64,000 bases of DNA from Anaerolineae bacterium (GTDB lineage Bacteria; Chloroflexota; Anaerolineae; Aggregatilineales; Phototrophicaceae). Positions 5,041 to 6,481 of this stretch are shown here, piece after piece. Location: contig JALHNT010000001.1 of the NCBI GenBank assembly GCA_022843385.1, positions 248,001 to 312,000 on the forward strand, in the 5' to 3' direction. How positions within the stretch are numbered: the first letter of the stretch is position 1; each line of letters opens with the position of its first letter. The translations under genes were made by a program, and so were the position numbers. The notes beneath the pieces are model-generated. The model had not been told where the DNA came from. It saw only the letters and a program-made list of their open reading frames with translations, and ran no database searches.

Positions 5041-5132
5041 GATGACTCCTGGTTCAGAAATGACGATCAGGCTACACTGGGGATTGATACACAGCGATCC
5101 CGGTTCATTCATCAGTGGACGAGGTTCAGCTT

Positions 5133-5753
5133 ATGAGCCAGACAGACGATGTGGGATTCGTGAACGTGAATTGGCGAAAATGGATCATTATTACTCTCGG
5201 TGCGCTGGCGATACTGTGTGCATGCAGTTTTGAGTTCTTCGGAATACGCCTTGAACTCTTTCCCGTACAGCGCTTGGAGGCGGCAGAGACCCAGTGGGAA
5301 CAAGCGGGTATTCGTGACTATCGTTTTATAATTTACTATGGCCTATCTGAACAATTAAGTGACCATCGGCGCATTACGGTACATGATGAGCGCGTTACAC
5401 TGATTGAAGCGAAAGAAGGGCCATTAAGCCTGCCTCACGAACCTTTCTTTCCCATTGATCGCTCTGCTCCAGAAAGTATGGCATACAGATTCAGCTATTT
5501 GCCTACCGATATCTATGACTGGACGATGAGCACCCTGCACAAATCCCTGAAACCCTATGCAGAAAAGGCACCTCTCGTTCGATTCACCCGATGCGGGAAT
5601 GGTGAAATTACTTTCGAATTCGATCCCAGCTATGGCTATGTCAAGTATTTTGCAGTGAATAGATATATGTCCTATGGTTGGTGTCCGGCACTTCACCCAC
5701 TTAGTGATAGATTTTCTGTCAGAGACTTTGAGATACTCACGGAGGATAGATAG
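5133..5753 (+). CDS. DUF6174-like exported or membrane-anchored protein
   Basis: A 206-residue protein with a hydrophobic segment near residues 17-33 (IIITLGALAILCAC), which could be a lipoprotein signal (LCAC) or a membrane anchor. After it, AAETQWEQAGIRDYRFIIYY matches the 'x-W-x-x-x-x-x-x-DYxF/Y' start typical of DUF6174 proteins. The function of that family is unknown. ATG 5133 follows GAGG; an upstream GTG at 5115 is possible. Its stop codon directly abuts the GTG start of the candidate selenoprotein, so the two genes form one transcription and translation unit. Confidence 0.6.
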   Translation: MSQTDDVGFVNVNWRKWIIITLGALAILCACSFEFFGIRLELFPVQRLEAAETQWEQAGIRDYRFIIYYGLSEQLSDHRRITVHDERVTLIEAKEGPLSLPHEPFFPIDRSAPESMAYRFSYLPTDIYDWTMSTLHKSLKPYAEKAPLVRFTRCGNGEITFEFDPSYGYVKYFAVNRYMSYGWCPALHPLSDRFSVRDFEILTEDR

Positions 5754-6179
5754 GTGATACAGGCGAAAAATCTGCATGGCAGCGCTCTCATTCTGGCTCG
5801 CATTCTCACCGCAGCAGCCTGGTTGCTCGGTCTGGCCGCCTGCACCCCCAGCGCGACCGCTCCGACGCCGACCGCCGTGCTGCCGCTGGCGCAGGGTCAG
5901 CCGACCTTCCTCTTTTTCTTCACCGATAACTGACCGCCCTGAATGCAAATGCGGCCCATCGTGGATGAGCTTCAAGCGGAGTTCGAGGGACGGGTGAGCG
6001 TTGTCTACCTGAATGCGTTTGATCGTGACCAGGGCGAAGCGGCTTTCGCGGTGCTCTCGCTGCCCGGACACCCCGGCAGCGTCATCTTCAACGCGGACGG
6101 CGAGGAAATCTTCCGGCGGGTGGGGATTGTCGATGAGGGCGATTTGCGTCAGGTGATCGAGGGTTTGTTGACGGGGTAG
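5754..6179 (+). CDS. Candidate U-P-P-U selenoprotein: thioredoxin-fold lipoprotein with two in-frame TGA codons
   Basis: Read through, the frame encodes 141 residues. The GTG start has GGAGG exactly eight bases before it and follows the previous stop codon with no gap. Residues 1-30 form a lipoprotein signal peptide ending LGLAAC (lipid-modified Cys30). A beta strand TFLFFFTDN is followed by TGA-CCG-CCC-TGA (5931-5942, residues 60-63) and then MQMRPIVDELQAEF. In thioredoxin-like proteins this position is WCxxC followed by a helix of this type, so both TGA codons sit exactly at the redox cysteines. Downstream, VSVVYLNAFD, a His-Pro in the cis-Pro region (LPGHPGSVIF) and the last strand and helix are intact. 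Selenocysteine at both sites (UxxU) is the simplest reading. The alternative is a pseudogene with two hits exactly at the two cysteines. TGA is the normal stop elsewhere in the window. Confidence 0.72.
5953..5971 (+). promoter_or_regulatory. Possible bacterial SECIS hairpin
   Basis: GCCCATC (5954-5960) pairs with GATGAGC (5964-5970) with one C/A mismatch, an added G-U pair at the base and a GUG apical loop that starts with G at 5961. The loop lies 18 nt after the second TGA and 27 nt after the first. The loose bacterial SECIS model asks for a short stem, a G at the start of the loop and about 16-37 nt from UGA, so one hairpin could serve both codons. The fold was made by eye. Confidence 0.45.
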
Positions 6180-6271: not shown

Positions 6272-6481
6272 CTATGCCGGGGTGGGGGCGTAGTCGATCT
6301 CCTTAAGGGTCGATTCGATCTGCTGCCAGGTGGCCGGCGCATCCCATTCGACGGTCACGGTCTTGGTGGCAACGACGCCATCGACGACCTTGACGCCCTG
6401 AATCTGGGCGACTTCGGTCTTGATGGTGCGGACGCAGCCATCACAGCCAATATTCGGAACCTGAAATGTCTTGCGATCCAT
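6272..6481 (-). CDS. Heavy-metal-associated (HMA) domain protein, copper-chaperone-like
   Basis: A 69-residue single HMA domain with the metal motif GCDGC (Cys13, Cys16) after a first beta strand (FQVPNIG), in the CopZ/Atx1 pattern. Such proteins bind Cu(I) in the cytosol and pass it to P-type ATPases or repressors. AAGGAG precedes the ATG. The promoter carries a palindrome of the CsoR type, which supports copper control. No copper ATPase or CsoR gene is in the window, so partners must lie elsewhere. Confidence 0.85.
   Translation of the reverse strand: MDRKTFQVPNIGCDGCVRTIKTEVAQIQGVKVVDGVVATKTVTVEWDAPATWQQIESTLKEIDYAPTPA

What the first reader, a model, noticed from the sequence alone, without database searches (positions are those of the whole stretch)
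5754..6179. Candidate double-selenocysteine (U-P-P-U) thioredoxin-fold lipoprotein
Seen: one frame with GGAGG eight bases before GTG, a lipobox (LGLAAC), a strand TFLFFFTDN, then TGA-CCG-CCC-TGA and an intact downstream thioredoxin fold with a His-Pro at the cis-Pro site. The two TGA codons sit exactly where thioredoxins have the two Cys of CxxC. Random decay would not hit only those two codons and leave the rest intact. Known: TGA is decoded as selenocysteine in bacteria with SelA/B/C/D, and UxxU motifs are rare (the SelL family is one case). Inference: a bacterial UxxU lipoprotein, likely paired with the DUF6174-like gene, that forms a diselenide. I know of no described family with this layout.
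Basis: partly seen in the sequence, partly recalled or inferred. Interest (0 to 1): 0.93.

Follow-up and report, generated by a model that had tools for sequence, protein, structure and literature searches.

The report
Double-selenocysteine thioredoxin-like lipoprotein family
This bacterial gene has two in-frame UGA codons exactly where thioredoxins carry their two active-site cysteines, 67 further genes from related genomes share both codons, and both are predicted to be read as selenocysteine with the help of one shared RNA hairpin, which would make the product a thioredoxin that works with a selenium pair instead of a sulfur pair.

Summary
Confirmed: window 5754-6179 is one frame (GGAGG, GTG, lipobox, thioredoxin fold, GHP) broken only by TGA-CCG-CCC-TGA at the CxxC site. 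It is not decay: 68 genes from 61 genomes have TGA at both positions. A hairpin, CCCAU-CGUGN-AUGGG, starts 12 bases after the second UGA, lies within the published SECIS distance of both UGAs (17 and 26 nt), covaries, and is fully paired in 61 of 68 genes (synonymous-recoding null: mean 3, max 10). The genome has tRNA-Sec, selA and selB; selD was not found in it, but is in 14 of the 16 two-TGA genomes of the close set. Two close relatives without sel genes carry CPNC instead. Against: G024 has UPRU but no selA, selB or selD; the window copy's hairpin has one C.A mismatch; folding energies are weak. Neighbours (c-type cytochromes, P-type ATPases, HMA chaperones) suggest work on heme- or copper-binding thiols outside the membrane (inference). 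No NCBIfam selenoprotein model, nor any family in the review passages seen, fits: a new UxxU variant within the thioredoxin superfamily.

The parts
5754..6179 (+). read-through gene for the UPPU thioredoxin-like lipoprotein, 141 aa, stop TAG
5741..5745 (+). GGAGG ribosome-binding site, 8 nt before GTG, inside the end of the upstream gene
   Evidence: sequence
5832..5843 (+). lipobox LAAC; Cys30 invariant in the 20-row alignment
5931..5933 (+). first TGA (predicted Sec60)
5940..5942 (+). second TGA (predicted Sec63)
5954..5970 (+). predicted SECIS hairpin G-CCCAU / CGUGG / AUGAG-C; 5 of 6 pairs in this copy (C5956 opposite A5968 unpaired)
   Evidence: model of PMC13188914
6066..6074 (+). Gly-His-Pro at the cis-Pro site, invariant in 20 rows
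   Evidence: fold
5115..5753 (+). upstream gene, weak DUF6174 match (17.3 bits, cut-off 23.8); same frame, its TAG directly precedes the GTG
6272..6481 (-). convergent small HMA-domain protein (CopZ-like); its cluster is present in 15 of 46 loci

Best explanation
The gene encodes a predicted lipoprotein with a predicted thioredoxin fold whose two active-site codons are both UGA, and both are likely decoded as selenocysteine (UPPU), directed by a single predicted SECIS hairpin that begins 12 bases after the second UGA. Shown by sequence: both TGAs conserved in 68 genes, a covarying hairpin at a fixed distance, tRNA-Sec, selA and selB in the genome. Inferred: SelB delivers Sec-tRNA twice, at UGAs 26 and 17 nt from the same loop; the protein is exported, lipidated at Cys30 and held at the outer face of the membrane; the two selenols would cycle with a diselenide. 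Most likely job (inferred, about 0.35 on its own): a fast reductant of disulfides in exported heme- or copper-binding proteins, as ResA/CcmG/TlpA do with CxxC (recalled), because many of the genes sit near CxxCH cytochromes, P-type ATPases and HMA chaperones. Evolution (inferred): since UxxC relatives carry the hairpin at the same place, a single base change of the second Cys codon (TGC or TGT to TGA) would put it within reach of an existing SECIS. The confidence below is for the double-Sec, one-SECIS part.
For: Both TGAs in 68 genes from 61 genomes: UPPU 17, UAPU 14, UGPU 7, others 30. Hairpin: all 5 core pairs in 61 of 68 UxxU, 23 of 24 UxxC, 1 of 14 CxxC; synonymous recoding of the same peptides gives mean 3.0, max 10 of 68 in 2000 trials. 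With a sixth pair, both-side changes in 17 of 396 cells (68 UxxU, 66 distinct rows) and 43 of 528 (92 UxxU+UxxC, 88 distinct), reached by 0 of 500 shuffles; partner slid by 1-3 columns: 9-49% paired against 95-96%. Third codon positions in the hairpin differ by 8%, against 50% before the TGAs and 61% after the hairpin. Loop of 5 nt, G in second place, 17 and 26 nt from the UGAs: inside the bSECIS limits for these. G000: tRNA-Sec 74.5 bits and ARAGORN SeC(tca), selB 385.6, selA 551.7 bits. Of the 16 two-TGA genomes among 61, 15 have selA and 15 selB over cut-off, 15 a tRNA-Sec match of 63 bits or more, 14 selD; selA in 25 of the other 45, Fisher p 0.006, kinship not corrected. SelD over cut-off carries one in-frame TGA itself in 35 of 42 genomes, in all 14 of the two-TGA ones (its place not checked). 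The CPNC genes of G003 and G004, genomes without selA, selB or selD over cut-off and with tRNA-Sec scores of only 43.9 and 46.3 (gathering 47), nest inside the UxxU clade (98/96) and both have the HMA neighbour. AF2 pLDDT 89.5; thioredoxins in PDB.
Against: No protein or selenium data. selD not found in G000. G024 (99% complete, about 10 contigs) has an intact UPRU gene with intact hairpin but no selA, selB or selD over cut-off; its best tRNA-Sec match, 47.1 bits, is nominally over the gathering score of 47 but at the level of the serine tRNAs. The window copy's hairpin has a C.A mismatch (15-mer -1.7 kcal/mol against a UxxU mean of -4.7; the same mismatch in 3 other UxxU and 1 UxxC genes). 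Mean energies over 48 nt hardly separate Sec from Cys forms (-11.6 UxxU, -13.0 UxxC, -10.0 CxxC); RNAalifold consensus energy is weak (-1.55). The number of further pair types is not above shuffles (295 and 96 of 500 as high). One CxxC gene (L142) keeps a full hairpin. The bin has 7% contamination, so sel genes on other contigs (C4, C67, C84) could be foreign.
Confidence: 0.9

Rival explanations
1. The family is double-Sec, but this window copy is losing the function: its hairpin mismatch would cut Sec insertion and the two other copies in the genome (contigs C45 and C57) would do the work.
For: C.A mismatch in the stem; G000 has two further UPPU copies with full hairpins.
Against: Reading frame intact with coding constraint; the same C.A recurs in three UGPU genes of one f11 clade and in one UPTC gene, so it seems tolerated; the sixth, outer G-C pair is kept.
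Confidence: 0.12
2. The protein is double-Sec, but the selenium pair is a soft-metal (copper or mercury) ligand in metal trafficking rather than a redox pair.
For: Small HMA cluster in 15 of 46 loci, P-type ATPase cluster in 16 of 46, against 20 PF00122 matches in 7.85 Mb of G000; UxxU is listed for a metal-binding family NF041115 (PMC13188914).
Against: Fold, cis-Pro site and best matches are those of thioredoxins; c-type cytochromes are neighbours at least as often (21 of 46).
Confidence: 0.2
3. The protein works as an oxidant or peroxidase (DsbA-like or Prx-like) rather than as a reductant.
For: DsbA-like cluster in 10 of 46 loci; selenols react fast with peroxides (recalled).
Against: PF00085 matches 20 of 20 rows, PF00578 (peroxiredoxin) only 7 of 20 at E<=0.01 and the window copy below its cut-off; low diselenide potentials favour a reducing role (recalled).
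Confidence: 0.2
4. UGA is read here by something other than Sec-tRNA (near-cognate suppression) or the gene is a decaying pseudogene.
For: G024 keeps a two-TGA gene without selA, selB or selD; selD missing in G000.
Against: In 68 genes only the two motif codons are TGA; covarying hairpin; selA and selB in 15 of 16 genomes; CPNC in two genomes without them.
Confidence: 0.05

Closest known systems
Selenoprotein L (SelL)
   Same: two Sec two residues apart, inserted with one SECIS (passage in PMC3316567); [quoted passage not shown] UxxU as its motif is recalled
   Different: animal protein, called Prx-like (passage in PMC2398784); here bacterial, hairpin in the coding region, PF00085, lipobox
Prx-like thiol:disulfide oxidoreductase PF00578 (UxxC/UxxU) and GOS Prx-like 2 (UxxU)
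   Same: prokaryotic UxxU redox proteins (PMC13188914 and PMC2398784, passages)
   Different: window protein scores 17.6 bits on PF00578 (cut-off 26) and over a cut-off only on PF00085; no PF04592 match listed at E<=1
Thioredoxin, Sec form (PF00085, UxxC)
   Same: fold; first Sec at the N-terminal Cys place; in the UxxC relatives found here the hairpin is at the same place
   Different: both active-site residues Sec, lipobox, GHP; TIGR01068 39.4 bits against a cut-off of 96.8
ResA/CcmG/TlpA membrane-tethered thioredoxins
   Same: supposed place and type of work (inferred, families recalled); cytochrome c and copper-type neighbours
   Different: CxxC, not UxxU; a ResA-like neighbour (L107) matches PF00578 and PF08534 best, unlike this protein

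Membership tests
Bacterial selenoprotein | in-frame UGA aligned with Cys of homologues | tested here: met
   14 CxxC relatives collected; two CPNC genes nest inside the UxxU clade
Bacterial selenoprotein | SECIS hairpin: loop 3-9 nt, stem 4-16 bp, G in first two loop places, 16-37 nt from UGA, MFE at most -7.5 | tested here: met
   Geometry met in the family (limits from PMC13188914). MFE limit: not met by the isolated 15-mer (UxxU mean -4.7), met by the 48-nt stretch (mean -11.6), but 14 CxxC forms also reach -10.0 there, so this does not discriminate. Window copy: 5 of 6 pairs, C.A mismatch
Bacterial selenoprotein | genome has selA, selB, selC | tested here: met
Bacterial selenoprotein | genome has selD | tested here: inconclusive
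   0 matches in G000 among 3 first-look candidates, assembly 95.7% complete; over cut-off in 14 of the 16 two-TGA genomes
Bacterial selenoprotein | selenium in the protein | not testable with these tools
   needs 75Se or MS
Thioredoxin superfamily (PF00085) | profile match over cut-off and Trx fold | tested here: met
   27.4 bits, cut-off 23.5; AF2 and Foldseek
Thioredoxin equivalog TIGR01068 | score over curated cut-off | tested here: not met
   39.4 against 96.8
Prx-like thiol:disulfide oxidoreductase (PF00578, UxxU) | PF00578 match over cut-off | tested here: not met
   window protein 17.6 against 26; 7 of 20 rows match at E<=0.01, their scores not shown
UxxU metal-binding selenoprotein NF041115 | NCBIfam match | tested here: not met
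   not listed for P0001 at E<=1 nor among the 23 families matched by any of 20 rows at E<=0.01
Any curated selenoprotein NCBIfam model | score over cut-off | tested here: not met
   none listed for the window protein. Other rows: TsoC in 3 of 20, TsoB in 2, HUIPC_Trx in 1, TIGR02187 in 1, best E 0.0004; bits of those rows not shown
SelL | two Sec two residues apart | tested here: met
   as predicted Sec
SelL | animal, Prx-like protein | tested here: not met
   bacterial genome with bacterial sel genes; PF00578 below cut-off
Lipoprotein | lipobox with Cys | tested here: met
   C30 invariant in 20 rows; lipidation itself not tested

The most novel reading that the evidence does not exclude
A bacterial thioredoxin class that runs on a diselenide: one SECIS hairpin drives two Sec insertions nine bases apart, the UxxU state arose from UxxC by single-base changes because the second UGA falls within reach of the SECIS already serving the first, and the class serves heme and copper loading of envelope proteins across 13 family-level groups of what appear to be Anaerolineae.
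Probability: 0.35. Interest if true: 0.88.

Novelty: new variant of a known kind. Interest (0 to 1): 0.75.

Why it matters
If true, it gives a large natural set of thioredoxin-fold proteins in which both active-site residues are selenium, with UxxC and CxxC relatives alongside as natural controls. That makes two open questions directly testable: what a diselenide buys a thioredoxin, and how one bacterial SECIS serves two neighbouring UGA codons.

Tried and rejected
Pseudogene or sequencing error: rejected by 68 genes with the same two codons and by codon-position constraint. Fixed partnership with DUF6174: the window's DUF6174-like protein has a phmmer hit in only 1 other of 46 loci (E 4e-4, L132); a second DUF6174-type cluster lies at three loci of family f22, one member of which scores 23.7 against a cut-off of 23.8 while two gave no Pfam match. 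A first reading of the neighbour cluster c1 as cytochrome oxidase subunit II was wrong: its longest member, tested, has a COX2 and a cytochrome c domain, while four small members tested are c-type cytochromes. Rfam scan of the window at gathering thresholds: nothing (I did not check whether Rfam holds a bacterial SECIS family). A genome-contig scan with the protein gave one Clostridium thioredoxin with CGPC (L047). A scan of the window for a TGA plus fully paired hairpin of this type found none; it demands 40 open codons after the TGA and five pairs, so it cannot find a UxxU gene or the window copy itself; it did find the UxxC control L147.

Left out of counts: from the listings all rows with 2 TGA were collected (68), but only a part of the rows with one or no TGA (24 and 14). 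L092 was dropped because the script found no [UC]xx[UC] motif in it; the motif rule asks for Pro or Leu at a fixed place, so the fixed distance of the hairpin holds for the 106 that passed it. One search did not list all its weaker matches. How many of the 400 genomes lie outside the class I did not count. Neighbourhoods were examined for 44 of the 68 UxxU genes and 2 CPNC genes.

Full report
OBSERVATION. The reading frame is as described. Start GTG 5754 has GGAGG at 5741-5745, and the in-frame TAG of the upstream gene directly precedes it. Read with TGA as Sec the product is 141 aa: MIQ...LLGLAAC-TPS...TFLFFFTDN-UPPU-MQMRPIVDELQ...LPGHPGSVIF.... PF00085 thioredoxin scores 27.4 bits, over its cut-off of 23.5. 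AlphaFold2 from a 20-row alignment gives mean pLDDT 89.5, pTM 0.71; the best Foldseek matches in the PDB are mostly thioredoxins or entries that hold one, and so are the best sequence matches.

FAMILY. A six-frame search of 61 genomes (own plus 60 relatives) listed 20 matches with exactly two TGAs, E <= 6e-20, in 16 genomes; G000 has three (contigs C1, C45, C57). A profile of the 20 (A1) found a two-TGA match at E <= 1e-15 in 50 of 396 genomes of the class (counted from its listing) and in 5 of 400 of the phylum, all five in the class. I collected 106 members: 68 UxxU from 61 genomes (all listed two-TGA rows), 24 UxxC and 14 CxxC (samples of the rest). In a protein-collection search 63 proteins matched; 60 are 66-84 aa long, which fits ORFs that begin after the second TGA (so do the two that I read, P0002 and P0003).

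TREE. On a tree of 106 rows and 100 columns (few columns; U written as C, so the motif cannot drive it), 66 of the 68 UxxU genes and the two CPNC genes of G003 and G004 form one group, support 98/96. The other two (G258 UPTU, G106 USHU) lie elsewhere; G258 is with UxxC genes, where TGA stands against TGC or TGT in the second codon, which looks like a separate one-base step. Starred branches force at least 3 changes of the UxxU label. By the labels the main group covers 13 family-level groups (f1, f4, f11, f22, f23, f33, f34, f42, f45, f48, f52, f57, f60).

HAIRPIN. In the 106 members the codons of P-[IV]-V-x-[GRE] lie at a fixed distance from the motif, and in Sec members they spell a hairpin: CCCAU-CGUGN-AUGGG, 12 nt after UGA2. 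All five pairs form in 61 of 68 UxxU and four in the other 7; in UxxC 23 of 24; in CxxC 1 of 14. Random synonymous recoding of the same residues gives on average 3.0 and at most 10 of 68 (2000 trials). A sixth pair joins the base before the stem and the first base of the next codon, mostly Leu, where G with CUN and A with UUR alternate (GC 44, AU 8, GU 2, other 12 of 66 distinct rows). Both-side changes: 17 of 396 cells in UxxU, 43 of 528 in UxxU+UxxC, 0 of 500 shuffles as high; sliding the partner by 1-3 columns drops pairing from 95-96% to 9-49%; the number of further pair types is not above the shuffles. The shuffles do not correct for kinship. L138 has CUC..GAG, at the cost of the conserved Pro and Gly. 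Codon positions 1/2/3 vary by 13/20/8% in the hairpin codons, against 18/24/50% before the TGAs, 37/51/24% in the four codons between UGA2 and the stem and 40/39/61% after it. The published bacterial model asks for a 3-9 nt loop, 4-16 bp stem, G in the first two loop places, 16-37 nt from UGA to loop and MFE of -7.5 or less (PMC13188914, passages); here 5 nt, 5-6 bp, G second, 17 nt from UGA2 and 26 nt from UGA1. The UxxC genes have the hairpin at the same 26-nt distance, so one hairpin can serve the first UGA and, when the second Cys codon becomes UGA, that one too (inference).

RESULTS AGAINST. The window copy has AUGAG, a C.A mismatch; its 15-mer folds at -1.7 kcal/mol against a UxxU mean of -4.7. 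The same mismatch is in three UGPU genes of one clade and one UPTC gene. Over 48 nt the mean energies barely separate Sec from Cys forms (-11.6 UxxU, -13.0 UxxC, -10.0 CxxC), and RNAalifold's consensus energy is weak (-1.55), so the case rests on pairing, covariation and codon use, not on energy. G024 has an intact UPRU gene and hairpin, yet no selA, selB or selD over cut-off, and a best tRNA-Sec match of 47.1 bits, nominally over the gathering score of 47 but at the level of serine tRNAs; I cannot say whether it lost the system lately or the genes are missing from the assembly. selD is not found in G000.

SEC MACHINERY. G000: tRNA-Sec on C67 (74.5 bits, gathering 47; ARAGORN SeC, tca), selB on C4 (385.6 bits, cut-off 242), selA on C84 (551.7, cut-off 268). 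Over the 61 genomes: of the 16 with a two-TGA gene, 15 have selA, 15 selB, 15 a tRNA-Sec match of at least 63 bits (my threshold; the gathering score also passes serine tRNAs), 14 selD over cut-off. selA is over cut-off in 40 of 61, thus 25 of the other 45 (Fisher p 0.006). SelD itself has one in-frame TGA in 35 of the 42 genomes where it is over cut-off, among them all 14 two-TGA ones (place not checked). G003 and G004, with CPNC, have no selA, selB or selD over cut-off and tRNA-Sec scores under 47; both CPNC genes have the small HMA gene beside them and the G004 one also the next two genes of the window copy (clusters c15 and c14): they look like positional orthologues with both Sec replaced by Cys where the machinery is gone.

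NEIGHBOURS AND WORK. Among 46 loci (44 of the 68 UxxU genes, 2 CPNC; 3-16 kb each) gene clusters recur: c-type cytochromes in 21 (four small members tested match PF00034 and PF13442), P-type ATPases in 16, small HMA proteins in 15, DsbA-like proteins in 10. G000 holds 20 PF00122 matches in 7.85 Mb, so a random 10-kb stretch would hold about 0.03. Relatedness of the loci is not corrected. At C45 the order is rhodanese, cytochrome c, P-type ATPase, UPPU gene (all +), DUF1573 and cytochrome c (-), ATPase with HMA domains (+), HMA (-). Hence my proposal, an envelope reductant for heme- or copper-binding cysteines like ResA/CcmG/TlpA; this is inference, about 0.35. The low potential of diselenides is recalled, not taken from a call.

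KNOWN KINDS. UxxU appears in the 2026 review's table for Prx-like thiol:disulfide oxidoreductase (PF00578), NF041115 and FmdB (PMC13188914, passages), and for GOS Prx-like 2 (PMC2398784, passage); SelL has two Sec two residues apart with one SECIS (PMC3316567, passage). The table passages that I saw list thioredoxin PF00085 only as UxxC. NCBIfam gives no selenoprotein model for the window protein. Paper searches for UxxU with thioredoxin and bacteria, for selenoprotein with Chloroflexi, Anaerolineae or Chloroflexota, for diselenide and SelL, and with lipoprotein and copper (listings, an open-licence library; passages of PMC13188914, PMC9312934, PMC2398784, PMC1088965, PMC12013277 and PMC3316567) showed me no such family. 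I therefore call it a new variant of a known kind.

Noticed in passing
L048:5408-6007 (-), L051:4351-4950 (+): A DUF1573-like gene (PF07610, 22.6 bits, under its cut-off of 26.1 for the part before the TGA) beside UPPU copies C45 of G000 and G009b is also broken by an in-frame TGA (LLQGC-TGA-PPRAVV); in L048 a hairpin GTCGTC-AGTTC-GACGAC starts 12 nt after it: a second selenoprotein candidate.
   Followed up: partly
G024:C1:819076-819423 (L026): Intact UPRU gene and hairpin in a 99% complete genome without selA, selB or selD over cut-off and without a clear tRNA-Sec.
   Followed up: partly
L142:3226-3273 (-): A CGTC (Cys) gene that keeps a perfect hairpin CCTGC-CGTGA-GCAGG, with a close UGTC relative (L090): looks like a recent Sec-to-Cys change with a fossil SECIS.
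   Followed up: no
L146-L149, L151, L085, L086, L098: A related UxxC group (UGSC, UGAC) of family f11 with the same hairpin in the form CCTGT-CGTGA-[AG]CAGG.
   Followed up: partly
window 5115-5753: The DUF6174-like gene is in the same frame as the UPPU gene and separated from it only by its TAG, so translation may be coupled.
   Followed up: no
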